A stretch of 64,000 nt of DNA from Copromyces sp. CBS 386.78 (lineage: Eukaryota; Ascomycota; Sordariomycetes; Sordariales; Sordariaceae): assembly GCA_030685235.1 (NCBI GenBank), contig MU839119.1, forward strand, positions 284,336-348,335, read 5' to 3'. Shown here piece after piece: positions 4,675-35,022 of the stretch. The notes below the pieces were generated by a model, which saw nothing but the letters and a program-made list of their open reading frames with translations, made no database searches and was not told where the DNA came from. The translations under genes and the position numbers were made by a program. Within the stretch, counting starts at the first letter, position 1, and every line of letters starts with the position of its first letter.

Positions 4675-7091
4675 ATGGCGCCATCACAGATGAACGTCGA
4701 ATACGATCGCATCAAAGGCGGTAGCGGCCGGAGATACGCCAATTTCCAATGTACGTCGCCGTCATTTACTTGCTCTCACCGCCAATTGAAACAACAAATA
4801 AGGCTCACACTTTGTCATCTCTACAACAGACGAGAACAAACGGCCCCTTGCTGGCTTCGGTGGTCTATATCCCGAGGGCTACGCTCCCAAGGCTGACCTT
4901 GAAAAACGCTGGCCCTGCCCCATCGTATGCTGCGACAAGGCGTTCAAGCAGCGCAGAGAATTGGGCGAACACTTTTCCGTAAGTGCCTCAGTTCTTCCTC
5001 ACCTTGTCCTTCTCCCGACACCTCCCCATTGCTAACTCCGTCTTTTCTTTGTTCCAGACGGCGCACAGAGGCGCAGCTCTCCACGACCTGCGCAACGGCC
5101 AATTCACCCTTATCCGCGACGAAGGCAACAAACCTCCATGCGTCCGCTCGAGGAGCAACAAGCCGCCATCTCCAATCCTTCCCCCTCTTCCTCCAGGCAG
5201 CCCCGCCTCATCGGCTTTGCGTTCGTCCTCGGTCGAGCGTGGATCTACGCCCGGTGACTACATCAAAAGAGAGCATTCAATTTCCTACGAGGATGGCCAA
5301 AAACCCGACTTCGTTATTCTCGACTCCGAGGATGACGAGCACACGTCCAGCACTCAGGACGTGGGCGAGGTAGTGGATGAGGAGGGAGAGGAGGAAGAGT
5401 ATAGCGATGAGGATCTGGACAATGTCTTCAGCGATGGCGCTGGCCCGGACAAGGAGAGTGTCACCAGCGTCAGTGACGAAGAGGAGGACGACGCCGTCCA
5501 AACCCCCGATCGCAACGAATCCGCCAACGAGAATCTCGAAAGCGGCCAATACTATGACTACGCCGCCTCCCCCGTCTGGCGCTATATTAACAAGTTCACG
5601 CCAATCCGCATCCCTGTTCCTCAAGATACCTGCTTGCGCGAGCTCCTCACGCTCCCACTCGTCCGTGAGTTTTCCCGTTCCTGGCGTGTGCGTCTCGGCA
5701 AGCCCCGCTTCGCTACAGATTCGTTCAATCTGAAGATGATGACTGCAGCGGCCATCTTCCTCATCGGCGAGGACATGGACGTTCAGGCCTGTACCGCATT
5801 CGGCTGCCTCAACAGACACCCCTTAAACATCGCACAGGCCTTGACAGACTTTGCGACAGACAGCGATGTCGTTCACGGAATGCTGGCCTTTCCGCGCTGC
5901 GTCGTCCCTCCGGCGGACTTTTTGGAGAGGTCGGCGACGCTAAAAGAGAGGCTGAACGGTATTACTTGCTGCAATGCATACTACTACCTCGGAAAAAAGC
6001 CGGAGCCCAAGTTGATCTACGTCGCTGGTTATCCGCTGCCGTACCCGATCACCCCCGAGAATCCTCCCCGTGCTGCGCCGGCACCGGCCCGCAAGGATCA
6101 TGTCGCCTCTCCCACGTCCGGCCAACCCCAGCAGGGCAGCCCTTATAATGGTCAATCCAGCCCGCTCAAGGCACGATCGACATCCGAGTCGCTGAAGCGC
6201 AAGACCTCTCCCTGCGCCGCACCCGACGATTATGCCTACGACTACCGCCTGTCAACCGACCCCGGAACGCCCGCCAAATGGGAATCCATGACCGGTGTCC
6301 TGCACCAGCGCGAGTGCTTTGCAGAGCCGGCTGTCGCGTACAGCCCTGAATACGTTCGTGTTCACACCAGCCTAAACAAGCGAATCAAGCTCTTCTCTTC
6401 TCCTTCCAGCAGCGGCAGCGGAAGCAGTCCCCTCGCAGACTTCCGCGTCATCAGCCTCGAGAATCAGCACAACCCCGTCCATACCGATAATCCCAAAACC
6501 AAGTCGAAGGCAGCGCAAGCCGTCAGCTTGCCTGTGAGCAAGTCAAGGTCCTACGTCTGTTCCGTGGCCAGCGGTGGTCCGGTCCGCGTCTACTTGGACA
6601 AGGGCAAAGGAGGAGGTCAGGAAAGGCCTTTTGACATCATGGAGGGCGGTGTTTGGGTTGTTGAGAAGGGTTGGGCATGCAGCATGGAGGCCGCTGTCGG
6701 TGCTGTTGTTGATGCCGGCGATGTCGCAATGGAGGACAAAAGGCATGTGACCGCCAGTGTGCATGTTACCGCCAGTGTGCATGTTACCGGGGTTTTTTCT
6801 TCTCCGGTGGCCGGCAAGACGGAGAAGGACATGGATGCCCTTGAGGTCAAGTCCAACAAGAACAAGCAGGAGGCCGCCGCAATCAAGAGGGAGGTCAAGA
6901 AGGCCAACAAGGAGATCAAGGAGAAGAAGAAACAGGAGAAGGAGGAGCGAAAGAGGGAGAAGGAGGCAAAGAGGCAGGCAAAGGAGGAGAAGAGGAGGGA
7001 GAAGGAGGTCAAAAGGGAGAAGAAGCAAGTGAAGAACGAGAAGAAAGAGAAGAAAGAGAAGAAAGAGAAGGAGAAGGCGAAGCAAGACTAA
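4675..7091 (+). CDS. C2H2-finger / central Cys-domain / cupin-like nuclear protein, family member 1 (three exons)
   Basis: The model is join(4675..4750, 4830..4978, 5058..7091), giving 752 residues. Intron 1 (79 bp) and intron 2 (79 bp) have GTACGT and GTAAGT donors and CAG acceptors. A C2H2 finger uses C55, C60, H73 and H78 (C-x4-C-x12-H-x4-H), and intron 2 splits it between S75 and T76. An acidic linker (about 140-225) contains IKRE at about 144-147, a SUMO-consensus-like site, and DFVILDSEDDE at about 159-169, a textbook SUMO-interacting motif. The central family domain (about 246-390) has VWRYI, CTAFGC, AFPRCV and CCNAYY. A cupin-like stretch (about 580-620) has GPVRVYL and GGVWVVEKGWAC. 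An 18-bp duplication repeats HVTASV. The tail (about 665-752) is almost pure Lys/Glu and likely a charged single helix. A nuclear, chromatin- or SUMO-linked role is inferred; the enzymatic function, if any, is unknown. Confidence 0.85.
6744..6785 (+). repeat. 18-bp in-frame tandem duplication inside family member 1
   Basis: The unit beginning CATGTKACCGCC is repeated at 6744-6761 and 6762-6779 and begins a third time at 6780. It encodes HVTASV twice. The copies differ at one base, so the duplication is recent. It sits just after the cupin-like stretch. Confidence 0.85.
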
Positions 7092-7670
7092 GGTAGACGT
7101 TAACTGCCCTTTGTTGTGGCCATGGATGATGTCACGGTCTGCGGCTTGGGATGGTGATGATTTTGTTTGACCTTCACGGTCTACGAAGGGAAGATTGTCA
7201 AGGCAAAGGAAAGCACCAGTGTGCTTGAAGGATCGCTTCATGTTTCGGAGCCGAGGCACGAAGTGTCATGGGTATCATGTTATGTGCAAGAGGCGGATTA
7301 CCGAGCGACTTGGGTGCTTTCATGGGACTGTGTGCTGGAGGAAAGAGATAATTTGCCTTGTGGCTTTTTTCAGTGAGCGAGCGTTGATTCTTTCTGCTTT
7401 TTATTGGCTTCGAGCATTTGAGGAAGAGAAGGCGACATCTAGTGATGTCTAGAAGGTAGCATAGCGATAGACCAAGCCTAAGGTACCTTAGTCATGGCTG
7501 ATACACTTTTTTCTTGTGATTTTCGAAAGCCCGAGTGGGTGTCGCATTTCTTTCTTTGCATTTGATGATACCCGTCCTCCTGTCTTCCACTCTCTTTCTT
7601 CGCGCGTTGGCTTCGAACAGAAACACTTTGGAGGAGTAGTTGATGGTTCGTTTGTTTCAAAACATATTCA
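7092..7670. other. Intergenic: 3' flank of family member 1
   Basis: No gene is recognised. The 3' UTR of the preceding gene is expected here. Short frames at 7167-7452 (+) and 7478-7660 (-) show no domain. The stretch ends at the target duplication of the composite MITE. Confidence 0.5.
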
Positions 7671-7704
7671 TTACATTAGAGCTTAACTTCCCGCACCGCC
7701 CCTA

Positions 7705-8166: not shown

Positions 8167-8168
8167 TA

Positions 8169-9185: not shown

Positions 9186-11296
9186 TTAGTCCTCCGTGGA
9201 AGGCCTAGTTCTAGCAGGCGTCCCAAAAACGTACAGCACAGCCTTGCTTTCAGTCCGCGGATTGCGAACTCTGCACTCCTTTCCAACGCCCACAGCCCAG
9301 TGGCCACCGCGCGAGATGGTAAAAACAGGTGCACCCTGGAGGATCACCTCGACGGTACCTTCAAAGACGATTATATCCAGGTCCTGGACGTCGCTGACGA
9401 GCGGAGTGGTGGTGCCGGTGTTCTGCAGATCGAGAACTTGAAGCGTTTTTGAGCCATTGGCGCCGACTGGGACGACCTTTCCATCGCGCTGCTGGAGCCA
9501 GATAGCTGAGTGGGCGTAAGCGGTTGGGGCTTGAGAGGGTTGTCAGTGATCTTGTTCTTGCGTCAAGGGAGAGGTGATAAGCTTTGGGGAAGGGGGATGT
9601 GTGGCTTACCGTTGCCCGGTGGGAAGAGATCCATGGGCTCGTTGCGCTGTGCCGAAAGGATGGTGATGGTTCCCGTCCCCTGCTGGGCTGATGTTCCTTG
9701 GATGCTTTGATGACTGGGAGTTTCCGGATAGGTGTTTGCTGGGATAGCTCTCTCCACCACGTTGAAGGGTGTAGTTGCGGGTGGCGGAGAGTACGGGGAA
9801 GAGGACCCCAAAGACGATTCAGAAGACGATTCCGAAGACGATTCTGAAGAAGATTCCGAAGAGGACGAAGAAGATGATGCCGAAGAGAATGCAGGAGAGG
9901 GCATCGGAGACAACACCGGAGCAAGAGCCGAAGCGGGTGCCGAAGCGGGTGCCGAAGCGGGCGGTGACCAGATGTTTGGCATGGGCGGGTTATTGAAGCT
10001 TCGGTAGACTGCGTTGCAGCACTTTACACCGGAACGGCTTTCGAACGAGACACAGTCAGGAAAAGCACCATATTTGTAGATGGTGAATTTCCCTTCCTGC
10101 ATGCTGTTCATGGCTGGGACAACTGTGTCCCAGTTCTCTCGGCACCTAGCGCTTGGAAGGCTGCAAGGGGAGTTCCTTGACAACTCGTCGCCAGTGAGGA
10201 AATTGAGGAGCAGTCTTGTAATCTTGCGGTTGGGCTTTTCGACCTCCAACCTGCGTTTCCAGACTATGGGGAGGTTCCGCTTGCGAGCACCATCGGCTTC
10301 GAGGAGCTTGACAAGACCCTTCGACACCCTGGGCACGGTCAGCTCAAAAGAGGTGAAACGAGTGATGTATTGCCATGTCTCGGTTGCTTTGACCCTCATC
10401 TGCAACTTCTCGAAGTCTTCCTCGTCGGCCTTCTTGTTTTGTCGTTTTTGCTTCTTGCGAGGGCCAGACTCAGTTGGGTCATCGTCGCTCCTCCCTCGCT
10501 TGGAGCTCTCGGTCTTCGAGGGGTGCTGCGCAATCGGAGACTCCTCTGTTCCAGGCTCCTTCTTAATTGACGCAGAGGGGGACGCCGGAGAAGAAGCCAG
10601 AGCGGGAGCGGAATCGCGTGAAACGGGCGGCGACCAAACTTCCGGCATGCTCGGGCCATGGAACTCTCGGTAAACTGCGTTGCAACACTGCCTTTTGCTT
10701 GAAGGGTTGGAAGATGCAAGCTCCGGATAGAAGATGCACCTCGGGAATGCAGCAGCTCTGTAGATGTTCGCCGTTTCTTCGTCATAACTCTCCATAGCGG
10801 GGCCGACAGTGGCATATATTGTGGCACAGTTGGCGCCATTGAGACCGCACATAAGGTCTCTAAGATGGTCTCCAACGAGGTATGCGGCAAGCATACAAAG
10901 AATACGTGGGCTCAGCCTGGTTGAAGTAATCCGTATCTTCCATGCCGCTGGCAGGTCACGCTTGCGAGGAAGTTCCATGAGCTCGCGCCAGTACTGATTA
11001 ATCACCAAGTTGCGGGGAATCCTACGGCCATCCGAGCCCATGATGCTCACGAGGTACTGCCACACCTCGCCCGCTTCAGCCCTTTCCCTGTATTTGTTTT
11101 CCCTACATTTTTTTATCCTTCGCCGATGTTCCCGGCGACTTGTATTGGTGTCTTGGGGCGTCGGATTGGCTTGCGCGGTTGCATGCAGCGGCTCCTCTGT
11201 GCCAGGCTCTTCCTTGATGGTCGGCGACATTGGCGCGTGGCTGGTCTGGTATGCCGAGTTCGAAGGCGTGGATAACCACGGCGGTGGCGGCGGCAT
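9186..11296 (-). CDS. Tandem central-domain protein with C-terminal CENP-C/Mif2-like cupin, family member 2 (two exons)
   Basis: The model is complement(join(9186..9505, 9610..11296)), giving 668 residues; the 104-bp intron has a GTAAGCC donor and a CAG acceptor. The start is the first ATG of the frame, with A at -3; the upstream extension lacks an ATG. Residues 27-221 and 246-445 are two copies of one unit: a SUMO-consensus IK[EK]EPGTEE, a basic stretch (RREHRRRIKK; RKKQKRQNKK), then the central domain with W-Q-Y-[LI], C-x6-C, AFP-x-C and CCNAVYR, and finally WSPP. Residues 446-510 are Ala/Pro/Ser-rich low complexity. The cupin (about 600-657) shows EGTVEVILQGA, SRGGHWAVGVGKECRVRN and AVLYVFG, matching the order of motifs in CENP-C/Mif2 cupins. 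This member has no C2H2 finger. Nuclear location is inferred from the basic stretches; cupin-mediated dimerisation is expected from the family. Confidence 0.85.
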
Positions 11297-12018: not shown

Positions 12019-12756
12019 ATGGCGGACGCGGTTTCGAAGCCGGTGGTATTGATTTTCATCTGGGATAACACAAGGAAATATGACGTTTGGGACGGCGAGA
12101 TTGCTATGCCCCTCCCAGGAGCCCCGTTCCCTGAATGAGATCACAGATTTCCTAACACCCCGCTTGAAGAGGGCCAGCACATAGTTACCGAAGGATTTGG
12201 TGCCCTCTTTCCGGAGGGATACCTGCCCGGCGGCTCACCAGAGACCCGGACATGGCCCTGTCCGGTTCGAAATTGTCAGCATACATTTCTCAGTCCACAG
12301 GGCCTGGGCGATCATTTTCTGGTAAGAACGTTCAGGAACCCTCATTCATAAGACATAACCGCCGCACAGTGCGTCGTCTCGAAAGTAAGAGATTGTAGCT
12401 AACAAACTCTCTCTCCAGAAACTTCATGCCGGGGCGATCATACACGACCACCTCGACGGAACATTTTCTGTTCTTCCCCAAGATCCTGACTCCGCCAATG
12501 ATGCCAACCGCCAGCCGTACGTTGGGTCTCAAGGGCGAATATTGCCGAGCCCTAGGCCGAGCCTGCGTCAATCATCTCACTCTATACCTCTCCACCCGGG
12601 ACCAGGCGCTCTTGACACTCCCGCTGTGTTGATTGACAACCACGACAAGGTAAATCCTCATACTGGCAACAAAGCGCTTGCGAGCAGCAGCGAAATCACC
12701 AATAGCGAGATAAGGACGGAGGTAACGACATTTATATCGACAAACACGGTCCCAAC
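12019..12756 (+). pseudogene. Family member 3, 5' part: C2H2 finger, broken donor, interrupted by hAT
   Basis: The finger PCPVRNCQHTF...GLGDHFL/KLHAG uses C-x4-C-x12-H-x4-H and is split by a phase-0 intron (12322-12418, GTAAGA...CCAG, branch GCTAAC) at exactly the codon split in members 1 and 5. By alignment, intron 1 should be 12104-12184 (81 bp, phase 1, branch CTAAC, acceptor CATAG), comparable to 79 and 80 bp in the paralogs. Its donor, however, reads CTATG, not GTATG. If intron 1 is retained, an in-frame TGA at 12136-12138 stops translation. After the finger come HDHLDGTFSVL and YVGSQGRILPSPR, shared with member 5. The frame then runs into the hAT element at 12757. The gene is judged dead. 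Confidence 0.75.
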
Positions 12757-15700
12757 CAGCGATTAAGACAATTCAAATAACAAATAACAAGTAACAATCT
12801 GAGGCAATCTGGTGAGGCAAATCGAGGGAAAACGCAAATAATCTGACAGGGTCTAACTTACTTGCTTATTTGCGTTAAGCTGGCAATCTAGTATTAATTA
12901 TAGTTCATAATATTTGAAAGGGTAGATTTTAGCTGGGAATCCAGCTCTTCTCAATGTTTGGTACCTAGTACTATATCCGTTCAAACGTTATATAAAAAGT
13001 TTACTCCTAACAGGCCGCTAGTAGGGTTATAGGGGTTCGATAATGCCCGTTTAAATGGCGTACTAGCCTTATTAATTCGTTTAAAATAGCGATACCTATT
13101 ATAGTATTAAGAAAGATTAATACTTACCTCTACATCTATTTACACTTTTTAATTATATATACTAAACTCCCTTATACCCTCTTTCTTACCCTCTTTATTA
13201 CTCTACCATACTTTTATATACTACTAATATAATTAAATCTACTGCTAGTACCTCTTTTATAGAGAACCCTCTCGCTAGTTCCCCTATTATTCGTATTTTT
13301 ATATATAATAAAGATAATACTACCCTTACTATTAATATATTTATTATATTAAAGAAAAGTAATAATATTTTTTAATATATTAGAAACTTTATTATTAAGC
13401 CGAAGGATAAAATACGTAACTTCCCTAATACCCGCTAGAAGTATTAAAATTACTAGATATTAACTATTAATAATTATTATAAATACCGCTATAGATAAAT
13501 AAATTCCCCCGTATTAAATATAAGGGTAAGGAATACGTAATCGACGCGTAGTTATTACGGGCTCGCCTACGAACCTTTCCTATTAAATACTACGGTATTT
13601 AATTCGCCGAAATTAAAAATAAGGTTATTAACGGCAATATTATTTATAAAACTATTGGGTAGGCATAATCGTACTACAATTATAATTAAATTTACGTTGG
13701 CGCCGCTACTAATTCTATAATTAAATATTTTAAAAGAGAATATTATATTAATAGGCTTAACGACGATAAATATAATAAAAATAACCTAATTTTTAAACGC
13801 TAAAAGATAGCAATTTAAAATATACTCTATTAAATTATTAAAATTTATAAATTTAGGCGAATTTCTATACCGAAACCTATTATTAATATTTTTAAAGAAT
13901 TATTATTCAATTAGGTTATTAATTATAATATACCTTTTAATAGGGTTACTAACCCGAGCTTCCCCTAATTTTTATCCCTTCTTAACTCCGAAATAGTAAC
14001 TAAATTATTATTAGAATCCGGAATAATAATTAAATTATAGGTTAACTTTAATTATATTCGCTCATTAAAGGCTATTAAAGCGAAGATATTAACTAGCCTA
14101 CATTAGAAATATATCTCCTTCGATTTTTAGACTTTTAATAATAACTATACTTTACTAGGAATTTATATTTATTATTTAAATAAAAATAAGTATTTACAAA
14201 ACTATTTTCTAAATATAAAATATATAAAGGGGGGCTACAATAATATTAATATCGGTACATCGATAATCGAACTTTTAAGGGAGTATAAACTATATAAAAT
14301 AAATTAGCTTAAATACTATTAAAGCAATAATATTAATTCAAATAATATTTATATTTATTATATTATTAATTATTTATTTAATAATAATATTAACTTCTAA
14401 ACCGATAATTTTACGGTCGATAAATTAAAGGATCGCCTTCGTATTCATTATTTTAACTATATCCTTAACCTCGCCGCTAGAACGTTTCTAAAGGGAAATT
14501 CTCGTCTATTATAGACTACAATCGATCTAACTAATAATAAAAAAGAAGGATTAATAAAGGAATAGCGAAAGCGGGGTCCTATTAATAAACTTCGTAACGT
14601 TATTACCTTCGTACGCCACTCTCCCTAATATAAGGAAAAATTCGCTAACTTTATAAAAGGAAAATTAATTACCTAAGAAAAAGAAAATTTAGGTAAAATA
14701 TTCGTTAATCCCAATTTTAAAACTACCAATCTTCTTACTAATAATAATACTCGCTAGAACTCTATATTCTATATAATTAAAAGGGCATTTAAACTAAAAG
14801 ATATAATCGATTACTTTTATACTTAGAACTTTCGTTAATACAACCCCGCTAAACGTATCCCCGCCAACAATATTCTCTCTTCTAAAAATTAGAATATATT
14901 CAACGCTATATTCAATATCCTCCATCCTTTTAAAATTACAACTAAAATCTTCGAGCAATAAAAGCCGTACTTCCTTATAATATTCCCGACCCTCTATTAT
15001 ATTTTAAACGATTTTAAAACGTAGTAGACTCTCTATAATAAAAGGATTACGTTGGATTCGACTACGTAATACAATATTTTAAACGAAAATAAAGAGGAGG
15101 ATAATAATAATAAAAATAATAAGAGGGGTAATAGCGACGTAAATTATAATAATCCCTTGCGCAAAATCGATAATAATACCCAAACCTAAATTCGACCTCG
15201 CTGTACTATTAACCTACTACGTCGGTTAAATAACTTCGAATTCGATATACCCACCCTTAATCCTTAGCGACGTAATTTCTATTAACTAGCGGTCTCTTCT
15301 CTTCTTACTAGTACTCTAATTCGTTACGGTAGTTAACCTCTTCTTTTTAACAATTAAATTCACTTACATCGCAATAATTAAATTATTAATAATAGTAATT
15401 AAATTGCTAATAATAATTAAATTAGTAATAATTAGACTAATAGTCTCCCTAATTATTTTCCCTCCCTATTTAAATTATCTACTTCTAATTACTAATTTAT
15501 CTAGGATAATATTAATTATACAATTACTAAATTCGAAAAATATATAACGGTTATAAGTAAATCAAACTCGTACTAAATTACTAATATATTCTATCCCGGG
15601 CAAAGGAAAAAGTATCTAAATATAAAGCTAGCTCGCTATAAAATTAATAATATTATCCGCTAATTAAAAGCTATCTATTATAAATAATATTAAACGAAGG

Positions 15701-16399
15701 ATTATAAAGTACAGCGAAATTATAAGGATTTTCGTCTCTTTTATAATATTTTACCGTTAACCCTAAACCGCTCCCTCAACTAGCCGTCTAACTCCTATAA
15801 TTAATTAACTCCTAATAAATTCTATAATACCGTACTAATATCCCTACTTACCTTCGAAGACGAACTTACTACCTATTTTAAAGAGAAGCTATTACGAGTT
15901 ACTAACCCTCTAAAATAGTAGAAGTAGAATAAGGGAAGTATCCCTACTTAACGAGGATAATATTTAATTATTTATTTATTCCTTCGATATTTGACGAATA
16001 TAAGAAAATATTTAATTTAACTAAATTAGTACTTTCGTTATAGAGATACCGTCTCTATTAAAATACGATTAATAAACTATTATATTTAAAGATCTAGAAC
16101 CGCTTCGATATTGCGTTAGGGATAGAGATGGGGGTGTAACGATAGCTTTATTAGGCTCTGGTTTTTCTTTATATTGTTGTATATATTTTTCCGGTTGTTT
16201 GTATCGTGTTTTGGTAACGATACGGCTAATAAAAGTATGTATTTACTGGTATACCGGAACCGGAATAATTGGTATCCGGATTTACTTCCAAAATGAGGCA
16301 AATAATTTTAACAATGAAATGAGGTAAATTAATCGATTTCAAACAATCTGAGGCAAATCGCTGGAAAAGTCTGATTGCCTCAGATTGTTTTAATCACTG
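12757..16399 (+). mobile_element. RIPed hAT transposon inserted in family member 3
   Basis: The element is 3,643 bp and flanked by a perfect 8-bp target duplication GTCCCAAC (12749-12756 and 16400-16407). The ends are inverted: the left end starts CAGCGATTAAGACAAT and the right end, reverse-complemented, starts CAGTGATTAAAACAAT. Both continue into an AACAATCTGAGGCAATC block (12793-12809; 16373-16389). The plus-strand interior, read through RIP stops, keeps hAT transposase signatures: a SFD-x-WTS-like stretch near 14110-14140, LNLAA-x-FL near 14460-14500 and R-x-RGPI-x-KL near 14560-14590. This fits fungal Hop/Restless-type hAT elements. TAA and TAG occur throughout, so it is inactive. Confidence 0.9.
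16341..16390. repeat. Perfect 16-bp inverted repeat at the right end of the hAT element
   Basis: AAACAATCTGAGGCAA at 16341-16356 pairs with its reverse complement at 16375-16390 across an 18-nt loop. The same block is found once at the left end, so the right end carries an extra inverted copy. It may be a subterminal transposase-binding site. Confidence 0.8.
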
Positions 16400-16407
16400 G
16401 TCCCAAC

Positions 16408-16980
16408 GAGCGTGACGGGAGTGAATATGGAGTACCAACAAAGCCACCGATTCCTAACCCAAAGAAGAGAAAAACAAACCACCACGAGGTCGCATTTGAA
16501 CCTAAAAGAACAATGACAGCATCATTTCCTTCACTGCATCTTTCGGTAACCGGAGGAAACATGAAACATGAAACAAAACAGTATCGAGTGTCTAACATGC
16601 ATCAAACGCCTGCTTTCTGGGAGGATCTATGGGGTCAGCTCCCACATTCCGGACAAATGGGGAGATTTGACGCAGCGTACGTTGTCCTATCTTCTAGATT
16701 TCTTTCGCGAACTTAAATTCTTGCACAGTTATTTAATGGTTCTATATCTCCAGCTGCTGTGGCGTACTGTGCGTCAAAAGTGGTTAAGGGGTGTGTTGCC
16801 ACTGATGATGGCACATCGGTGTTGGTTCGCAATTCGCATAACATCTCTGAGGCAACCAGAAGCAAGGACATTGGATGTAGCAGACATCCGCTCATACCCA
16901 GGCACTCTTGCGAAAGTCTTGATCGTATGCCATTGTTGTTGTTACATGTTCATTACAAAGAGTCTACATTGAAGTCATAA
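16408..16980 (+). pseudogene. Family member 3, 3' part downstream of the hAT insertion (tentative)
   Basis: Immediately after the right target duplication the sequence returns to normal GC content. One frame (about 16402-16716) encodes a basic PNPKKRKTNHHE, a classical nuclear localisation signal, and then MHQTPAFWEDLWGQLP. This frame is not the one left by clean removal of the hAT element, so at least one indel is implied. A second frame (16568-16972) overlaps it. The central Cys-domain of the family is not recognisable here. The link to member 3 rests on position and the nuclear signal. Confidence 0.4.
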
Positions 16981-17139
16981 AGTTCAACAAACGCTCCTTT
17001 TTTTTTGCATGGAAGGCCCAGACACCCACCCGTATGGAAGCTAGTGCTTCTCTCTTCCCGCTTTCTCGCACAATACTCATGCGAAAGGAAACTGGCAAAC
17101 CAGAAGTCCTTCTCGAAACCACCTAAACATCAATCCCCT

Positions 17140-18054
17140 TCAGGATCCGAGTCTCCAGGCCAGGTGTCCACCGGAGAGCTAGTTGGGAGAGAAGCTCATC
17201 CGAACGAGGCCATCGACCTCAATTTCCTCGGGTGAATCGGTCCTTCTTGATATCGGAACCTGTTGTTGTGATCTCGTTCTTTACTGGCATCTCTTCGTTG
17301 GCACTCTCGTTGTTGATTCCCACTTGCCATCATCGAGACCGAGTAGGTACCTTGGGTGATGACCCTCCCAACGATTAGAGGCTAAGGCACTTTACCCACA
17401 ACTCTCGTCCACCTATCAATAAGTACCTGGTATCAGAAAACCAAAGGCTCATCATCTTCCCTCCTGAGTAAAAGCAAATAATCCTCCTTCGATTCTTCTT
17501 CTTCCTCGACCGTAGCTTTCCCGCAAGAGATGGTCTCCGATGATAATATCCGTCCGTTTGCTGTGACCATCTCAGGCCAGGCCAGGCCTTGCAGCCAGCC
17601 GGCCGGATGTGCGCTGTTGATGAAGACTGCGTGTTTGTTAGTGCCTATGCCTCAATGAAAAGTTGTGGGGTGTGTCACTTACTATTGCCCGGTCCGTGAA
17701 CCTACAAGGGCTCGCGACACTGCTCACGAGTGCGAGTGAGCGACCCAGTCTCATGCCGGGCTGGTACTAGTGCCTCTTAGATGGGGTTGGCGCCGGGGGT
17801 CTCGTCAAAGAGGGTTGAGGGCCCTGATCTCTCGGCCATGTCAAGGGCAGCCAGGCCGGAGCGGGGGTCGAGGAGTAAGACTGAGGCTGCGGCGAAGAAT
17901 ACGAAGGGGTATACCGATCAGCGGCGGGCTGAGAGAACGGCGGGCGCAGAATACCTCTAGGAGGGGGCATGGAGGCCGGAGAAGACGCCGAAGGCAACAA
18001 CCGGGAGGAGGTGCGACCCAGATAGGGCGAAAATAGTCCTTCCTCTCTCCCCAA
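17140..18054 (-). pseudogene. Family member 4, C-terminal remnant with cupin-like end
   Basis: On the minus strand a Pro/Ser/Ala-rich frame (18054-17767) resembles the low-complexity linker of member 2. It is followed, after a stop and frame change, by REPL-stop-VHGPGN and a phase-1 donor. The intron (17627-17682, 56 bp; GTAAGT...CACTAAC...GCAG) falls at the same place as in member 2, where RNEPMDLFPPGN precedes the phase-1 intron. The next exon contains GWLQ and ANG, like WLQQ and ANG in member 2. Further on, in another frame, EIEVDGLVRMSF and LSGGHLAWRLGS (17142-17225) recall the cupin. Stops and frameshifts show it is dead. The N-terminal half is absent. Confidence 0.5.
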
Positions 18055-20675: not shown

Positions 20676-21134
20676 CTAAGGCCGTCGCCTCTGATACCTT
20701 GCCTGATGAGGCCAGACCTGTATTTGGCCCATTGCTCATGGCCCAAGACGAAGGCTTTCCAAAGGACTCAACTGTAGCCGAGTTGAGGAACTACAAGCGG
20801 CGAGTCCGATGTGCGAGCGAGAACGAGGAGATCAAGGACGAAGACGATAATACACCACAAAACTCAACATTCGGAGCACACTTTACCAGCAAAGCCTACA
20901 AGGCATATTATGAATATGCCGGCAAGCGTCCACTGCAGATTAAGGAACACCTCCCTACCACACAAGTACGCTGGGAAACGTACTTTGAGCTAGATTGGAA
21001 CTTCGGCAAAAGGCTCGAACCGATCCTTCAAATCCAGGCGTGCCTTGTGCTTGACTGGGTCTTGCTTGGTTCCAACCCTAAGCTCCCGCTGACCCTGGCC
21101 TTTGGCTTCCTAGCCACTTTGCTCTGCAAGAAGT
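20676..21134. other. Possible coding remnant, unassigned
   Basis: A plus-strand frame runs from about 20699 to 21256 without an ATG start. It includes VAELRNYKRR and YFELDWNFGKRLEPIL but matches nothing recognised. It overlaps the F-box-like remnant in another frame, so it is not called as a gene. Confidence 0.25.
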
Positions 21135-21633
21135 ATGGCGGCCTCCAGTTTGGCTCACATGGACACGCTTCTCATCGAGCTGATCATGCTTCCTCGTCAA
21201 CGCGGGCTCCCATACAGCTGGAATCTGCGGGAACTCGGGAAACATGCCCTATTTGAAGACATTTACAACACGCGCCTTGTATCTAAGTGGTTTACAGCGA
21301 TTTACTCTACATATCGGTGGGAGCGACATGGGTTGCAATTAGTATAGGAAGCTTTGTGATGAGGTGCTTTATCTTGGCCACGAGCACAAGTCCGATTTCC
21401 ACACTTTCATCCCATCATCTCTTCGTTCTCTTCACGATCTCATTTCCTTTCATCTCAACAATCTCTGCTCCCCCAAAATCCAATACGCCCCCATTCCTCT
21501 TTCACACCCCGCCCACCATTTAAAAGCGTTCCCTTCTGCCGACCACACTTCATTTACTCATTGTTGTCGACGAATTGTGTATAGCAAGCATCACGATGAG
21601 TGGAACATTGTGGACCTGGATGATAAGCGATAG
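21135..21633 (+). pseudogene. F-box-like protein remnant
   Basis: The frame 21135-21347 contains DIYNTRLVSKWFTAIYSTY, which matches the typical fungal F-box core D-x-x-NLRLVSK-F. Just before it lies LLIELIMLP, comparable to the F-box LP-x-EL start but displaced by an unusual insert. After a stop at 21345-21347 the adjacent frame (21364-21633) continues with LGHEH...SLRSLHDLISFHL, plausible leucine-rich sequence of the same protein. The break and the short length suggest a decayed gene. F-box proteins are very abundant in Pezizomycotina. Homology is by motif only. Confidence 0.4.
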
Positions 21634-22070: not shown

Positions 22071-22216
22071 TTGTATCGCTCGTATAAGTGTTTGCGTAAG
22101 TGGTACGACGGTCTAATTGCCTTTGAGTAAATAGTCGGATCTAGTATTGCCCAAGTGGTCTAAGGAGGGCCAAAGCTCCTCCCTGCCATCCAACAAAGCG
22201 AACAGAAGCCCAGCCC

Positions 22217-22694: not shown

Positions 22695-23057
22695 TAGGAG
22701 ATTACACCTGATTGGCTGGCTGGTTCCCGCTAATGCAAACTAGTGAAATCTAACCAATGCCTACGCTCCTTAGGCCTTGGCTCCCTTGGCTTACCCGTCG
22801 CCCGCCCAAGTCCAAAATCACCAAATTCACTACCACTACCACTAAGGTACTTTATGTTTTGGCCGTCGTTGTCGCTATTATCGTCGCTGTCACTAGGGCG
22901 ATTGAATTTGTAGTGATGTAAATGTTGAAAAGTTAGTTAGTTTGGCAATTGAAGACCGGATGGATGCATTTATACTTGGGAGTGCAATAGCTTTTATCGT
23001 CGTCGTTATTGTCGGCGGTAGTAGTGATAGTTGCAAGAGGAAGGTTAGGAGACTTTG
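22695..23057. other. Left flank of the Gypsy element
   Basis: Normal-GC sequence with GTCGTT-rich stretches and no supported gene. Together with 30874-31097 it is probably the interior of an older element bounded by the inverted 18-bp arrays. The CTTTG target duplication is at 23053-23057. Confidence 0.4.
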
Positions 23058-23402
23058 TATCACGGGGCAAGGCGAAGGTTAGGTATTTGTAAAGATATTC
23101 GTAATTGTACGAGGAAGAGGAAGCTATTTGGGGGAGCTCTAATGGCCATCTATATATAGTGAGCATATAGCCCGTACAGCCTTATTATCCTATAGATTAT
23201 CCTATAGGCTGGTATAATCTATATAGCCTTAGTAATAGGGGTAGGTTAATAACCGCAGCCAATTAAATATTAAATGCGTTTAGCCGCATCTACTATGCTA
23301 AGTCTCTATAGCCAATTAGAGTATACTATTAATCTAGCAATTATTACCGTAGTAAAAGTAGCGATATAGGACGGTTAATTAATTATAAATAAACTTATAA
23401 TA
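23058..23402 (-). repeat. 3' LTR of the Gypsy element (345 bp)
   Basis: It aligns over its full length with 30524-30868. Most differences are C/T or G/A, as expected from RIP. This copy keeps GGGCAAGGCG near its start, where the other reads AAGGTAAAGCG, so each LTR retains different original bases. Confidence 0.9.
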
Positions 23403-26400
23403 CTTCCCTCGCTTAAAATACCCCTAGGGTAAAAATACTTCCCTTTTTAATTTCCTCTATAATATTTATTACTTATCCTTTTATATTATTTTTACTTTCC
23501 TTTTTAGGCTGCTACTTTACCCTTTTAATAATATAATAATCGCCATACTACTAATATTGTACTTGTTTTTCCCGGCGGCTAGTCCGTCCTAATAGCCTTC
23601 TCTAGAGCTTTCTTAATTCTATAACAACGTTTCTCGTTTACGATCTATTATAATAATATTAATACATTTAAATTATTATTATAAAACTTCCTAAAGTTAT
23701 TAATATAATATTCTACGTCCTTCTATAATTATTAAATAAAATTATAAGGGTTTCCCCAAACTACCCAATACTCTTATTTACTATTTTCTATATTAAAATA
23801 GCAATTATCAATAATTTTATAAAACTATTCAATTACGTCTTTAACGTTATTTATTCGTTTTATAATCCGCCCGTTATTTATTCGGATATTTTAAATTTTA
23901 TCCTACCCGGAAATCCCTTAATAATTCTAAAGTTTTATTATATTAATATAGAAAGTACGGCTATACTTTATATTAACAGATAATTTTAATATAACGTAAT
24001 AGTTATTTACTTTTATAATTTCGAAAGGCCCTTCTTACAATAGCGTAAACTTAATTTACAAGCGGCTTAATACAAAATTAATTATATTAAATAAAATTTT
24101 ATCGCCGATATAATATTTTAATATATTGGACCGTCTTTTATTAGCGGTTTCTTCGTACCGTATTTAACTATTCTTAATTATAATAATAATTTTATCTAAT
24201 ATTATACTAAACCGGTTAATAATTTTATTAATTTTAAAATACTCCGCTTACTATATTTTAAAAAGCTTTAATAAGTATAATTAAACGGATTCGACTCCTA
24301 TCCGAAGGTAAAAACTATAATTTACAAAGAATAAAAATATACCGGTACTATTTAAATATATATTATTGCCCGCGAATTCTACTAAGGGTAGCCAATCGAC
24401 TTAATTATCCTAAACCTAATTAATATAAGTACGAAGGAAATACTCTAATTTAACGTTAATACGCTCGGTTTAACTATTAATTTCTTTATAGAAAGCTAAT
24501 AATAATTTTAAAATAATTCTTAACCTTTTAAAAAAAGCCTTCTAAAATTATAAAACGAATTAAATACCGTAATCGGAAACAATAATATCCGGCAAGCTAT
24601 AAAGGGCGTAAATCTTCTCGATAAATCAATTAACGAATTCTTCTATAATTAATATTTCGACTAAGATATAGTGCCTCATTTTTATTAAATAGTCTACTAC
24701 TATAATAATATACTTATACTTTCGGCCTCCCCGGATATAGGGCGTTATAGAGGTTATATAATTAATAGTAATATCCTTCTATAGAGCGAAAAGTATTAAT
24801 AAAAATTTTAAAAGCCTTACCAATATATATTGTAACGGTTTCGTCTTTATATATTAGAAGTAAGCTTTATAATAAATTCTAATAATTTTATTTATACTTA
24901 ACTAGTAAAATAAGCGATTAAAAGTAGTAAACGTTTTATCCCAGCCCTAATAACCTACTAGTATAGGTTTATAATACCTTCGTATAAAATATAACTATAG
25001 CGTAGTATTTTTTAAATCGACTATAAACGCTAAACATTAATATATTTTACTATTAATTGCATAACATTCTATAAAAATTATTTTTCTTATACTTTTCTTT
25101 AGTACTTTAAGCTATATTCAATAATTCTCATCTATGAGGGCGGCTATTAAATTTTAATAAAAGATTAAATTATAATAATTAGCGTCGATTAATTTATCCG
25201 TAAATAATTCTTCCGGGTTAAATTCGTAAATATAAATATAACTTATAAAAATAGAAGGGTCGAAAAATATTTTATAGCGGGCTTTTAATCGATTATCGTT
25301 TATATCTTTCAATATATCCTCTAATTTCCTATTCAAAATATTAGGACGGACTTAGAAAATACCCGGCCTATATTTAATAATAAAATTAAATTTAGATAGG
25401 AAATTAAACTACTGTATATACTACAGTATAAGTTTCTTATTTTCTATAAAGGTTTATAGGCTTTTATAGTGGGTTAGGATTTTAAATAGTTTTTAAACGC
25501 CCTATAATTCTAATCCTTATTTTTCTAAAATTTTAATAATTGTAAATAATTCCTTATTGTAAATATCGTAATTATATTCTACGGCAGAATATTTTTGCGA
25601 AAAATATACGACTAAGCGTAAAATATTCTCGTCATTGTACTAAAATAGTATATTACCTATAACCTAATTAGAAATATCGGTTTCGACTACAATTAGTCGG
25701 GACTAATTATAAATTTGAAGGATAGGACTTATAGTAAAAACTTTTTTTAATTCTTTAAAAACTTTTTAATAATCTTTTATTTAGCGCTATTCGGCTAATT
25801 TCTTTATAAGGTCGTATAGTAGAATAATTATAATCGAAAAATATTAAATAAAATACTAGTAAAAATTTATAAATTTTAAAAATCTTTAAAGCTAGCGTTT
25901 TAATTACGGGGCCTCTTATTTAATAACGGCTTTTACCTTCATAAAATCTATTTTTATACCCCTTAATATAATAAAAAGGCTTAAATATTTTATATAGGTA
26001 ATATTAAATTCGTATTTATCGATATCTAATTAAAAGTTAACGTTAATTATTCTTCTAAGGACTTCGTTTATATAAATAGTATACTCTTTTACGTTTTCGG
26101 AGTAGACGAAGATATTGTTTAAGTACGTTATTGTATAAATATTTAAGATATTATATAGTATATTATTAATATAATTCTAAAACGTACTAGGTATGCCTTA
26201 GAGGCCAAAAGGAAGGATTAATAATTCGTAGAAATTAAAATATATAATAAAAATAATTAGCTATTTATAACCTTCCTAAATACGGATTCGGTTAAAAGCG
26301 GCGATAATATCCAATTTAATAAAGATTTTAATATAATAAATAATATTAAAAATTTCCTTAATTAATAGAAGCGGGTACTATATTTTAAGTATAATATTAT

Positions 26401-27599
26401 TAATATTACAGTAATCGATATAAATGCAAATACCCCCGCTAAATTTATTTACAAAGAGTAAGGGTAAGGCTATTTAGGATTAGGAAAGTTTAATAAAACC
26501 GTTTTCTAATTAATTATCGATCTATTTTTTAACGATAATTACTTCTATAAATAAAATTAATCGGTAGCGGACGTTTAACGGTTTTTCCCTTAGCGTAAAT
26601 TCGATTTTATAGTTATATATTTAATAAAGCGGAAATTTATTCGCTTTCTTAATACGGAAAGCGTTAATCCTTTTCTAATATTTATATAGGAATTTAAATT
26701 TAATTTCTTTATTAGTTTTCGGAAGTCGGTCAATTTTCTTATAGAATATTAATACGTCTTCCTCTATAATTTTTATAATAATAGCCTCGTATATAAGTAC
26801 GTCTATATCTAAATTACTTATAAAAATAGTAATTCGGGTAATTTCAATAGTTACTAATTCTTTTTAATCTATATCCCCTACGTACGTATTAATAAATTCG
26901 TAGAAGCGCTTTAAAAGGTAGTCCTTATATTATTTACCTTTACTATTTATAATATCCTAAACTATTTTTTTAATAAAATCGTTATAAATATTAATTTTAT
27001 AAAGGGCCGCTAATTAGCAGATTTCCGTATAATTCGTAAAGTAGGGCTATAAATTATACGTTTCGTATAAAAAATTAAAAGCGGTAATATTAATACTACG
27101 TATATCCTAAATATTAATTCGTCTTTCGATTATTCTAAACTGCTTTATAATTAAATAAATAATATTAGAGGAATTCTTTATACCTTTTACCTTTCTATAA
27201 AGTAGCGCGGGTATAAAAGGTTCTACTATCTATCCTAGCGCGTTATAATCTAATAAAGCTATATTTCCGGTAAATCTTTTAATAGGAAATTTGAAATAAT
27301 ATAAAAAGAGGTCGTAGTAGTACGGCCACGCCCCCTATTTTAAATAAAAATTCTCGTTAACCTCATAAAATTTATAAAGGTTGTAGGCCTTACTTCTAAG
27401 GTAATTTTCGTAGGGTTCGTAATAGGGGGGCGGAGTAGAAATAGAATCGTCTTCTAATAATAATTCTAATATTTAAATATCGCTACGCTCCGGTCCATTA
27501 TAGGGGATACGGTCTTAAAACCGTAATAGCCCTAATATATTTTAGCGAGGCTCCTATTAGTATAGGAATAGTACGGAATTAAAATCGGCTTTTAATAAT

Positions 27600-28010
27600 A
27601 ATTCTAAATTTTAATAATAGTAATTTACCCTACTAGTAATCTTATTAATATTCTTATTAGTAATCCTAGAATAGTATTTTAAATTTTAAAATTCTCTTAA
27701 ATTTTAATAATAATAATCTACTCTACCGGTAGTCCTATTAATATTCCTATTGGTAATTCCGGAGTAGTATTCTAAATTCTAAAATTCTTTTAAATTTTAA
27801 TAAAGTAATAAGTAATCCCTTAAAATCTAATATTCTATTAGACTCTAACGAAGTAATAATTCTAATAATTAAATATCGTTGTATATAAATCCCTCTATAG
27901 GGATTAAATATTAATCTTCTAAAATCTAATATTTTAATAGATTTTAATAAAGTAATAGTTTCGGCGGCTAAATATCGCCGCGTATAAATCCCTCTATAAG
28001 GATTAGGACC
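27600..28010 (-). repeat. Internal tandem repeats in the gag-pol region
   Basis: On the minus strand, 27747-28040 encodes a repeated motif: NPYRGIYTRRYL...ITLLKSIKILDFRRL is followed by NPYRGIYIQRYL...ITSLESNRILDFKGL, about 35 residues per unit. Further left, at about 27600-27790, a second pair of related units of about 120 bp occurs. The position is between gag and RT. Repeats in this linker are unusual for Gypsy elements. Confidence 0.6.
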
Positions 28011-30523
28011 GAACGATTTACTAAACCGCTTTTTATCCAACTAATACAATTATTTATCCTAAGTAGAAGCCTTAATATCTTTAAAATATTTAATAATACT
28101 CTTTTATCCCATTCGTTTACCGTTGCTACGTAAAATTAATAATACGAATTGCTAGGAGAGCGGTTCTATATACTAGGGGCATTCTATAGGGAAACGGGGA
28201 AATCTAATAAGAAATATTAATTAGCGTACTAATTAATAAATTAGACCTTCCCTTCTATCTAAAAGATATACGGTTCGTATTTCTTAAACCAGGGTAATCC
28301 TAAAATAATAAAGTAGTTAGAAAAAATATTGTAAATTAAGAATATAATATTTTCTAAATAATAACCAATATAAAGGCTCGCCGTAAATCCTTTAATAATA
28401 AATCCTTTTATAATACTGTTAACGAAAATTAATTTTTTAAGTTCTAAGAATTTAAATATAACGAATTTGTTTTTCCTTACAAAAGAACGGTTAATAAAAG
28501 TAAATACTATATAACCGCTATCGACGAAAGTTATATAATAAATTTTATATAATCCGAAGGATAAATAAGAAGAAAGGAATAATAAATTTTAATGGAAATT
28601 ATTTAGTAAATTAATAACGATTATTTCTAAATTTTTAAACAACTCCTTCCTTCTTCCTATAAACCTTTCTCGCCCCTATAGGCGACTATTTATAAAATTC
28701 AATTATTTCCCTAATTATTACCTATATTATTATCGTAATATTCCTCACCCTCGTCTTCTTCTCTGGCATTTATAGTACGGAAGTTTATATTATTACCGTA
28801 CCCCCGCTAACCGGCCGCCGGGGGGTTAATATTAGTATTATTATTATTATTAGCGTTCTTAATATTTTAACCGGAATTTCCGCCTCCCCGGCCTCCTCTA
28901 CCTCTTTCTCGGCTACTTCGGCCTCCTTTATTACCTCCTCAACCCTCCCTATTACCGGTCTAAGGGCTATAATCGCTATAATTAATACTATTACGGCAAT
29001 TCCTCATAATATACCCTTCCTTTCCGCATTTATAGCACAAATTATTCTTATTCCAATATTTGATAATACTACTATAAATAATATATAAAACGTAAATAAC
29101 GTTAAAATTTATAATATCGCCTCCTTTACTAATAATCTTTCCCAAATTATTATTAGAATTCGAATTAAAAATCTTACTAGTAGCGGATTTAGACCTATAA
29201 TCATTATCCTCAATATTACGCGCGAAATAGCGGTAGAATAATAATTATTCTTTAAAATCGTCTTCAATAGGGAAGGTTCGTTAATAAGTAAGGGAAATAT
29301 AAAGTTTTTAAGAAATTTTATTTTATAAATAATATACTTTTATAATATCGTTTAAACTATAATAATTAACGGTTTTAACGTATTCTATTTCGAAATCGGC
29401 GAAGAAATAATTTTCCTATTTAAATTCGTTAAATTTACGGGCGGTATTTAAACGTAAATCCGTATTATTATAATAAATATCTAAGAAGGATAAGAATTTA
29501 ATACTTATTTTCCATTATTAAACCTCAGGATTATTAAAATTTATAAAAATCTTTTAAATATATTTATCAATTAAAATAATTATTTTAAAACTAAATAAGT
29601 AGCTTACGTAAACGATCTTAATCTTTTCGTTAGGGAATTTAATAATATTTAAAATTTAAATAGAAAGGATATAGCCCTTTTACATTTACGCTTTATTATA
29701 TTTAATATAATCCCTTTAAATAATTACAAAAGGTTTAGGGTCCGGGAAGAGCAGTTTTTAATACTCTACTATACCCGTATTATTATTTATAGTAATTTAA
29801 ATAATATAATAATTCTACTAATTTATAAAGAGAACGGCCTATATTTCTTAAACGAAATTTCATATATTATTAAATTCGGTATAAATTTAATAAAATTCTT
29901 CCTAAACTTAATAAAGGTCCTTCAATATTTATTTATATTCGTCGAAAATATTAATATATTATTCTTTTTTAAATTAAAATTCAAATTAAAAATTCTGAAA
30001 TTCCTCAATAATAATAGTAAAATAATAATTAAATACCCTAATTATTCGGGTAATAAAATTAATAATTACTTAAAATACTCCTCCTTTAATTAGGCCGAAG
30101 GAATCGATAAAAGTACCGTCGTAAATAAATTCAACCTTCGTTAAATATTAAATAACAATTATAATAAGAACCGTAACCGTATTAATACGAAGGAGGCTAC
30201 TTAAAGTTACTAAATAAATTTCTTCGTTAATAGGGGGGTTAGAACTCTCTATTAGTATTCTTAAATTCTCCGGTTCGTCGGTATAATTTACTACGTTAGG
30301 TACCTCAACGTCGTTATCCGTAATATATTTTAATAAATAGGCTTATTATAGGGTATTTAGGAGGATACCTTCGTTTATAATAATATTATCGTTATTTAGA
30401 ATTATAGACTCGGGCCTTCGTAACCTCTTATTCTCTAGCGACTAGTAACGTCGCTTAATTGTATTAAATAACGTACGTTTAAAAAAATATATATTTATAA
30501 CGTAATAGTTAAATATAATTAAC

Positions 30524-30868
30524 TATTATAAGGTAAAGCGAACGTTAGGTATTTATAAAAATATTCGTAATTGTACGAAGAAGAAGAAATTATTTAAGGG
30601 AATTCTAATAACCATTTATATATAATAAATATATAGCCCGTATAGCCTTATCATTCTATAGATCATCCTATAAGCTAGTATAATCTATATAGCTTTAGCG
30701 ATAGGGGTAAGCTAACAACCGTAGCCAATTAGATATTAAATGCGTTTAGCCGCATCTACTATACTAGGTCTCTACAGCCAATTAGAGCATGCTATTAACC
30801 CGGCAACTATTACCGTAGTGAAGGCAGCGATATGGGACGGTTAGTCAGTCACAGATAACCCTGTGACA
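30524..30868 (-). repeat. 5' LTR of the Gypsy element (345 bp)
   Basis: The 5' LTR relative to the minus-strand coding direction. It ends in CCCTGTGACA at 30868 followed by CTTTG. Its outer third is less RIPed than the partner LTR (CAGTCACAGATAACC against TAATTATAAATAAAC). Confidence 0.9.
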
Positions 30869-30873
30869 CTTTG

Positions 30874-31274
30874 GGAATTTGGGAACTTCGAGCTTTTTAT
30901 TTTTAGCGACCCTGCTTCTCTTATCTTCTTTCTCCTTCTCTCTCTCCTTCTCTCTCTCCTTCTTTCTTTCCTTCTCTCTTTCCCTTTCTTATTTATCGTA
31001 CTTTGCTAAAGTGGAAGATTTTCGTCATTTCTCAGGGTCTTGCAGCGGGCCGAGAGCTTAGTATCTTAGGTTCCCGGTCCAACGGTTAGGGATTCCCAAC
31101 GCTTAAGTTCTTTACAACGCTTAAGTTCTTTGCAACGCTTAAGTTCTTTGCAACGCTTAAGCTCTTTCAACTATTAAACGGCGTTGTACTACGCTTAAAC
31201 TATCTTTAAGCGTTAAAAGCGGCCCTATATCACCGTTAATGTCCCTTATTTTCGGTCCTCTCAAACACTTCAAA
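30874..31274. other. Right flank of the Gypsy element with CT-rich tract
   Basis: Normal-GC sequence that contains a CTTCTCTCTC-type tract at about 30915-30990 and the right-hand 18-bp array. No gene is supported. Confidence 0.4.
31098..31169. repeat. 18-bp tandem array, right copy (inverted)
   Basis: Four 18-bp units start at 31098, 31116, 31134 and 31152. Each carries AACGCTTAAG followed by a TTCTTT spacer. The orientation is opposite to the array at 22641-22694. Two more diverged copies follow to about 31215. The arrangement suggests the subterminal repeats of one older element. Confidence 0.85.
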
Positions 31275-33410: not shown

Positions 33411-35022
33411 ATGGAGCCCTGGGTGCAAGAGCAAGCGATGATTCGCAGCCTGAGGCCTGCTCCTCTTGATGATCGCGCTTCCTACCAGACCTGGAAAGGA
33501 GTCTTCAGTACGTTTACAATATCCTAAAATTTTCCACGCTCTCATATTAGATGCTCTTGCTAACACTTCATTCTTCGCTCACAATAGACGGGCAGTACAT
33601 CAACTACCATCACCCGGCCGCTCTGTTTCCAGAGCGTTACGCTCCCAACTCGGGCGCGAGCCCGTGGCACTGTCCTGTCCTCGGCTGCGGCGCAGTCCAT
33701 CAGTTTTCTGTGGAACTGGCTGGTCATTTCACCGTGAGTACCTACCTGCTGCCAAACCCATCCCTATCTGCGAGAATGGTTGAGATTCTCGGATACTTCT
33801 GGTTCAGCATTTTGATATGTATGAATTTGAGGAGTCGACATTCTGATAAAAGCATGAGTGGGACAATGTGGAAATCGAGTACTGACAAGAGACACATTTT
33901 GCTGCACAGTACGCTCATCGGGGTGTCACTCTCTGCGACAACCGTAACGGTACCTTCACAATCTTGAGGGGTGAGGAGCAGGCTGATCCCCGCGGGTATG
34001 CCTATGTTGCTGCCCAAAGGCAGATACTAGCTGGCCCCAGGGCGTCATTCCCGTTCGCCACCCCGGGGCCCGAGCACGCCGACGACAACCAGGGCAACGG
34101 CGTGGCGGATGCAGCTGACGGTAGCGAGTCTGAAGCGTGGCGCGACTCTGGCATCAGCATGATGTCAACCAGCGACGAGGACAGCAGCGGCGAAGAAGGT
34201 GGCGAGGAAGACGAGGGCAGCGACGACGACGAGGACGATGACACCGTGATGGGCGATGCGGACGACGACAGCGATGGCTTTCCCGAGGAGACCATGGTGA
34301 TCCCCAACGCCCGTGCCATCGGCCAAACTCCCGGCGACGGTGCGTCTTCTGCTGCGGACGGAAACCCCATGGACGTTAACTCCAGCCAAGCCCCCAGGCC
34401 CGCTGCCCAAGCCGCCATCAGCCCGGTCACCTTCCCCGGCCTCCAGCTGCGCCCGCTCCACAACCTCCAGCCACGCCAGGAGCTGCCCGACCCGACCCCT
34501 CTCCAAACGGAGATCTGGCCCTACATCACGCGCTGGACTCTCTACCCTCTTCCCCTCCCCTCTCCTTTCTCCCCCTCCCATCGCACCCTCCTTGCGCTCC
34601 TCCGCTTCCCCCGCATCCGTTCCTTGCCGGTCTCCTGGCAGGAGCGCCTGCGGGCCCGCACCCCCTCCCTCGGCACCCTCACGGCAATTGCCCTCTACCT
34701 TGGCGGCAGAGCCGAGTCCGGCTCGCCCTGTCAGTCACACTGCGGGCAGTATGGCGCCCTGGTGGAGAGGCTGTTTGCCGTCCAGAGGGAGAAGGCCTGG
34801 GAGGAAGGGTCCGGGCAGTGGAAGTTGGAGAAGAAGTTTGCGTTTCCGAGGTGTGTGAAGGTGCCGGAGGCGTTGGAGGGGGATGGCGAGGTGGAGGAGG
34901 TGTTGGGAGGAAGGCCATGTTGTAACCATTTCTTCCGGGAGTTGAGGGGTGCGTGGGAGACGAGCGAGCCGTTTCCGCCGAGGCCACCGAATGGTCTTGT
35001 TTGGAATGGGCCGATGTGGTAA
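33411..35022 (+). CDS. C2H2-finger / acidic linker / central Cys-domain protein, family member 5 (three exons)
   Basis: The model is join(33411..33507, 33588..33733, 33910..35022), giving 451 residues. Intron 1 is 80 bp (GTACGT...AATAG, phase 1) and intron 2 is 176 bp (GTGAGT...CACAG, phase 0); both are at the positions used in member 1. The finger uses C61, C66, H79 and H84 (HCPVLGC...ELAGHFT/YAHRG) and is followed by CDNRNGTFTILRGEE. A strongly acidic stretch occupies about residues 155-210. The central domain (about 281-430) has IWPYITRWT, LRFPRIRSLPVSWQERL, CQSHC, AFPRCVKVPE and CCNHFF. The protein ends at NGPMW shortly after this domain, so the cupin of members 1 and 2 is missing. A nuclear role is inferred from the domains. 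No RIP damage is seen, although the 28-kb RIPed block starts only about 600 bp downstream. Confidence 0.85.

What the first reader, a model, noticed from the sequence alone, without database searches (positions are those of the whole stretch)
4675..35022. A clustered, apparently undescribed family of C2H2-finger / Cys-domain / cupin proteins
Five members lie in 30 kb: 4675-7091, 9186-11296 (-), 12019-17000 (broken), 17140-18054 (-, broken) and 33411-35022. The central domain (three genes, four copies) keeps W-x-Y-[IL], L-P-x-x-W-x-x-R-[LI], a C-x(3-6)-C pair, AFP-x-C and CCN. Its Cys layout recalls the fungal unknown domain DUF3716, but I cannot confirm that. Domains are gained, lost and duplicated between members.
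Basis: partly seen in the sequence, partly recalled or inferred. Interest (0 to 1): 0.88.

Follow-up and report, generated by a model that had tools for sequence, protein, structure and literature searches.

The report
Fungal zinc-finger/DUF3716-like/cupin gene cluster
A dung-fungus genome carries a cluster of related genes whose proteins join a zinc-finger-like motif, a cysteine-bearing helical domain and a cupin domain; it is a diverged branch of a known fungal protein family of unknown function rather than something wholly new.

Summary
The family is real. The window lies in Copromyces sp. CBS 386.78. Members 1, 2 and 5 are confirmed. Member 3 keeps the finger and is split by a mutated hAT-like transposon. 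Member 4 matches none of three domain profiles. Three more intact members lie 25-34 kb upstream.

Three DUF3716 genes elsewhere in this genome share the upstream LPRxR helical module and a C-terminal cupin, two of them also the finger. Profile-profile comparison links all three domains. But Pfam's DUF3716 model does not score the cluster copies, and the module was seen before only 4 of 13 DUF3716 copies: this is a diverged sister branch. The cupin resembles, not uniquely, the CENP-C/Mif2 dimerisation cupin. The central domain models well (pLDDT 82, pTM 0.80); Foldseek found no credible PDB or viral match.

Best reading, inferred: nuclear, dimeric, DNA- or chromatin-binding proteins. Function is untested.

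The parts
4675..7091 (+). Member 1 gene, 752 aa, exons 4675-4750, 4830-4978, 5058-7091; finger, central domain, cupin, Lys/Glu-rich tail
   Evidence: Spliced model; relatives P0013-P0016 in Pseudoneurospora, Neurospora sp., Sordaria macrospora and an unnamed source
4808..4993 (+). Member 1 C2H2-like finger, exon 2 part (C-x4-C-x12-H-x4-H; intron 2 lies between the two histidines; the profile range overlaps a little intron)
   Evidence: Finger profile 66 bits; alignment
5568..5999 (+). Member 1 central domain (extended DUF3716-like)
   Evidence: 157 bits; AlphaFold2 model pLDDT 82.3, pTM 0.80
6477..6773 (+). Member 1 C-terminal cupin
   Evidence: 83 bits
9186..11296 (-). Member 2 gene, 676 aa, exons 11296-9610, 9529-9186; two central domains plus cupin, no finger found
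   Evidence: Spliced model; profile scan
10655..11071 (-). Member 2 central domain, first copy
   Evidence: 108 bits
9989..10384 (-). Member 2 central domain, second copy
   Evidence: 89.5 bits; pairs with the first copy in the tree, support 99/98, both on long branches
9222..9503 (-). Member 2 C-terminal cupin
   Evidence: 76 bits; weak Pfam CENP-C_C match 12.2 bits, E 0.23, below cut-off 29
12019..17000 (+). Member 3, broken: exon 1 and finger remain, insert 12757-16399, no central domain or cupin found
   Evidence: Finger 12154-12342 at 44 bits; frames read apart
12749..16407 (.). hAT-like DNA transposon 12757-16399 (3643 bp) between 8-bp repeats GTCCCAAC (12749-12756, 16400-16407); body RIP-mutated in composition
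   Evidence: TA/AT 1.29, substrate index 0.36; inverted ends agree at 17 of the first 28 bases; second copy on contig C98 at 89% identity over the 344 bp tested
17140..18054 (-).
   Evidence: No finger, central or cupin profile match in six frames at E 5 or less; only other DNA match found is 105 bases at 82% on C33
21126..21308 (+). Possible remnant of a central domain (TLLIELIMLPRQRGLPYSW)
   Evidence: Weak: 16 bits, E 0.0025 in the six-frame scan
33411..35022 (+). Member 5 gene, 451 aa, exons 33411-33507, 33588-33733, 33910-35022; finger and central domain, no cupin found
   Evidence: Spliced model; profile scan
33572..33745 (+). Member 5 finger, exon 2 part
   Evidence: 56.5 bits
34507..34950 (+). 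Member 5 central domain
   Evidence: 130.5 bits

Best explanation
The cluster encodes a diverged Sordariaceae branch of a fungal family whose fullest form is C2H2-like finger, extended DUF3716-like domain, C-terminal CENP-C-like cupin. Shown by computation: the domain order, shared descent of the three domains with DUF3716 genes elsewhere in the same genome, a common three-exon structure of the five intact finger-bearing genes, and relatives in Neurospora, Sordaria and Pseudoneurospora. Inferred: the proteins are nuclear; the finger contacts DNA (or another nuclear partner), the cupin makes homodimers as in CENP-C/Mif2 and is no enzyme, and the Cys-bearing central domain is a small helical interaction module held by metal or Cys contacts. 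Together they would act as dimeric DNA- or chromatin-bound adaptors whose copies part roles by losing the finger or cupin or doubling the central domain.
Confidence: 0.45

Rival explanations
1. The family takes part in self/non-self recognition or genome conflict (like HET-domain and other lineage-specific Neurospora genes): the copies diversify because they recognise partners that change.
For: Clustered, diverged copies with domain loss and doubling, relatives found only in Sordariaceae and unnamed sources, long RIP-mutated blocks beside the cluster. Lineage-specific Neurospora genes cluster with HET-domain genes near telomeres (PMC10684091, title and start of abstract in the listing).
Against: No HET, NACHT or death-fold family among Pfam matches of members 1, 2 and 5 at E 10 or less. 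That paper's main text holds none of NCU08862, C2H2, DUF3716, cupin or CENP. No population data or DNA of orthologues was at hand, so selection was not tested, and the rate of change was not measured against other genes.
Confidence: 0.2
2. The cupin is an enzyme or a ligand sensor and the other domains regulate it.
For: Cupin folds are often enzymes (general knowledge); Cupin_3 matches 2 of 7 cupin members, best E 7e-4.
Against: No HxH motif in the aligned copies (read); two of six intact cluster members show no cupin.
Confidence: 0.08
3. A decaying gene cluster with no present function.
For: Member 3 is broken, and fragments lie at C238:594-770, C65:226057-226182 and perhaps window 21126-21308.
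Against: Six intact members with open frames and splice sites; A-, C- and m1-type proteins have relatives in other genera; members 1, 2 and 5 do not have RIP-mutated composition.
Confidence: 0.1
4. A domesticated transposon gene family.
For: Sits among RIP-mutated repeats; zinc fingers and Cys domains occur in transposases (general knowledge).
Against: No transposase, integrase or reverse transcriptase among Pfam matches.
Confidence: 0.04

Closest known systems
DUF3716 (Pfam PF12511) proteins; here three genes at C9:102.9-105.8 kb, C9:221.4-224.6 kb and C63:56-59 kb
   Same: LPRxR(D/E)L helical module before the Cys domain in 4 of 4 copies (with W-x-Y in 3 of 4), C-terminal cupin frame in 3 of 3 genes, finger in 2 of 3; shared Cys pair, F-x(1-2)-C and C-x-N
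   Different: Cluster copies lack the second Cys of CxNC and the last Cys, have a longer stretch between the first Cys pair and FPxC, and do not score with the Pfam model. The other 9 of 13 DUF3716 copies above cut-off do not show the module in the frames read, some of which are short
CENP-C/Mif2 C-terminal cupin (PF11699)
   Same: Jelly-roll fold; top PDB sequence-profile match by a hair; probability 63.9 to the genome's own CENP-C
   Different: Below the Pfam cut-off; the genome's CENP-C match above cut-off is on C116; other jelly rolls score as well by structure
C2H2 zinc fingers (PF00096)
   Same: C-x4-C-x12-H-x4-H spacing in 7 of 7 aligned fingers
   Different: Only 2 of 7 match the Pfam model, below cut-off; one finger per cluster gene, with a conserved downstream L-x-D ... 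F segment

Membership tests
DUF3716 (PF12511) | Match to the Pfam model above its gathering score (22 bits) | tested here: not met
   0 of 8 central copies match at E 10 or less; no C41 place among the 15 genome matches at E 10 or less
DUF3716 (PF12511) | Homology of the central domain by profile-profile comparison | tested here: met
   Extended domain probability 96.7-97.8; core alone 55.7, E 1.2e-4; no permutation reaches the scores
DUF3716 (PF12511) | Cys layout CxxC ... PFxxC ... CxNC ... C (read from this genome's copies) | tested here: not met
   A first pair, FPxC and C-x-N kept; second Cys of CxNC and last Cys absent
CENP-C/Mif2 cupin (PF11699) | Match above the gathering score (29 bits) | tested here: not met
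   m2 12.2 bits; 2 of 7 cupins match, best E 0.0082 (that list includes three cupins of the DUF3716 genes)
CENP-C/Mif2 cupin (PF11699) | Same fold | tested here: met
CENP-C/Mif2 cupin (PF11699) | Homodimer at centromeres | not testable with these tools
   No biochemical data
C2H2 zinc finger (PF00096) | C-x(2-4)-C-x12-H-x(3-5)-H (recalled) | tested here: met
   7 of 7 aligned fingers
C2H2 zinc finger (PF00096) | Pfam match above cut-off | tested here: not met
   2 of 7 match, best E 0.061, below cut-off
Metal-binding cupin enzymes | HxH part of the cupin metal motif (definition recalled) | tested here: not met
   No HxH in the cupin alignments (read)

The most novel reading that the evidence does not exclude
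Finger-DUF3716-cupin proteins are a fungal class of dimeric chromatin adaptors, built like a zinc-finger protein fused to a CENP-C-type dimerisation cupin, whose central domain is a new helical Cys-bearing fold; in Sordariaceae one branch has formed a diversifying gene cluster.
Probability: 0.3. Interest if true: 0.7.

Novelty: new variant of a known kind. Interest (0 to 1): 0.45.

Why it matters
DUF3716 is a Pfam domain of unknown function that no paper in the held library discusses by that name. This work indicates that in a subset of such genes (4 of 13 copies here) the Pfam model covers only the second half of a larger domain, that these proteins share a C-terminal cupin that may dimerise, and that a cluster invisible to the Pfam model belongs beside them. 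That gives a concrete, testable proposal with N. crassa genes (NCU08862 and 5E6.240) in a model organism. The central domain's confident model without a credible Foldseek match makes it a sensible target for a solved structure.

Full report
Setting. The window is the end of contig C41 (284336-348335) of a 49.8-Mb assembly. My spliced protein of neighbouring gene A is 100% identical to QBC45DRAFT_478296 of Copromyces sp. CBS 386.78, so I take that as the organism. By one-kb blocks, 13001-16000, 23001-31000 and all 28 blocks from 36001 on have strongly positive composite RIP indices (0.65 or more); the family genes have negative ones (reading of the index recalled).

Observation. Members 1, 2 and 5 splice into 752, 676 and 451 aa proteins. 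Each of the four central copies, held out, is found by a profile of the other three at 52.3-79.4 bits, with at most 11.1 among 2000 shuffles each; with seven copies (adding the upstream members) 56.6-112.4 bits against at most 12.1. A six-frame scan of 112,335 bases of the contig finds the central domain clearly seven times in six genes, the finger in six genes and the cupin in four, besides weak matches.

The cluster. Three more members lie upstream on the minus strand: A (C41:250433-252680, 674 aa), B (253537-256183, 814 aa) and C (257529-259354, 562 aa). The five finger-bearing intact genes (A, B, C, m1, m5) share three exons, the second intron lying between the finger's two histidines. For member 5's last exon 6 of 6 genome matches lie on C41; for B's central domain 6 of 8, the others being an 83%-identical 42-aa fragment on C65 and a weak match (E 0.3) on C9; the tool scores best candidates only. 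Orders: A, B, m1 finger-central-cupin; C, m5 finger-central; m2 central-central-cupin; m3 finger only, broken.

Members 3 and 4. Member 3 keeps an exon-1-like stretch (TRKYDVWDG) and the finger; a 3643-bp insert between 8-bp repeats, with ends beginning CAGYGATTAARACAATY and a body of RIP-mutated composition, fits a hAT element (the hAT signature is recalled); another copy lies on C98. Member 4 shows no family domain.

Relatives. Searches listed 12, 5 and 5 proteins, 21 different ones, one of them A itself: A-type in Neurospora, Sordaria and unnamed sources; m1-type in Pseudoneurospora (93% identity), Neurospora sp., S. macrospora and one unnamed; C-type in S. macrospora and Neurospora, including NCU08862. 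In the tree of 28 central copies the m1 group is firm (100/99), the A/B group moderate (88/89); the C-types form two firm groups (Copromyces with S. macrospora; Neurospora) that are not joined to the exclusion of m5, with a long-branch warning, and the places of m5, m2 and B are unsure; 8 of 25 inner branches are well supported. The m1-type and C-type S. macrospora proteins are both listed with a longest contig of 6,404,168 bases, which suggests, but does not prove, that the cluster is old. I did not measure rates against other genes.

DUF3716. The genome has 13 places above the Pfam cut-off of 15 listed, none on C41. Four copies, in three genes, are preceded by the LPRxR(D/E)L module of the cluster domain, 3 of 4 with W-x-Y; the other nine above the cut-off do not show it in the frames read, some of which are short. 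hhalign gives probability 96.7 (10 copies) and 97.8 (the 4), core alone 55.7; no column permutation reached any of the three scores (100 each, one run failed) and reversed controls had probabilities of 0.2% or less. The two C9 genes carry fingers, the C63 gene shows only the stretch before it; all three have a cupin frame at the C-terminal side, on the same open frame for C63, on a later frame for the C9 genes, whose splicing I did not model. Profiles from the cluster family and its relatives score six fingers in two genes at 25-43 bits, four central copies at 14-26 bits, three cupins at 14.3, 9.2 and 4.8 bits (E 0.002, 0.08, 2). The C63 cupin finds the first C9 one at 41% identity, E 2e-14. 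Profile comparison makes the links clear: cupin probability 95.9, finger 98.9 (canonical side: three fingers of one C9 gene), 0 of 60 permutations each. Some A-type relatives (P0004, P0006, P0009 and the second copy of P0007) read CANSYYR where DUF3716 has CANC, a natural bridge.

Central domain fold. With 23 aligned sequences the domain of member 1 models at pLDDT 82.3 and pTM 0.80, with eleven helices of four or more residues. Foldseek returned one PDB match (E 4.1, probability 0.02) and four viral ones (E 5.4 or more); none is credible. The second look compared only 8 chains, so a new fold is possible, not shown. I had no coordinates and could not measure Cys distances.

Mechanism. I commit to dimeric nuclear DNA- or chromatin-bound adaptors, probability 0.45: shown are architecture and descent; inferred are nuclear place, DNA contact, dimerisation and metal. 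The chief rival is a recognition or conflict role (0.2), suggested by clustering and divergence and by the reported clustering of Neurospora lineage-specific genes with HET-domain genes (PMC10684091, title and start of abstract in the listing; five terms searched in its text, none found).

Literature. DUF3716: 0 papers. PF12511: one passing mention as a protein of unknown function in Colletotrichum (PMC5225507, one passage seen). NCU08862: 0 papers. NCU08861, NCU08863, SMAC_07957, SMAC4_13352, 5E6.240: 0 papers. These cover only the held open-access library.

None of these altered the odds given.

Noticed in passing
window 12749-16407: hAT-like transposon of RIP-mutated composition with an 8-bp flanking repeat inside member 3; a copy at 89% identity over 344 bp on contig C98:112015-112358.
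   Followed up: partly
window 21126-21308: Weak central-domain-like stretch (16 bits) between members 4 and 5, perhaps a remnant of another member.
   Followed up: partly
L002 594-770 (C238): Fragment resembling member 1's finger exon; 64 bases at 91% identity to the window.
   Followed up: partly
L053 4060-4194 (C65:226060-226194): Fragment about 42 aa long, 83% identical to the start of member B's central domain, on another contig.
   Followed up: partly
P0017, P0019, P0020, P0021: In Neurospora C-type proteins the Cys half of the central domain is poorly matched or missing, unlike in Copromyces and S. macrospora; annotation error or real loss not settled.
   Followed up: no
window 36001-64000: Long AT-rich block of RIP-mutated composition running to the end of the contig; no telomere repeat seen in the last 600 bases.
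   Followed up: no
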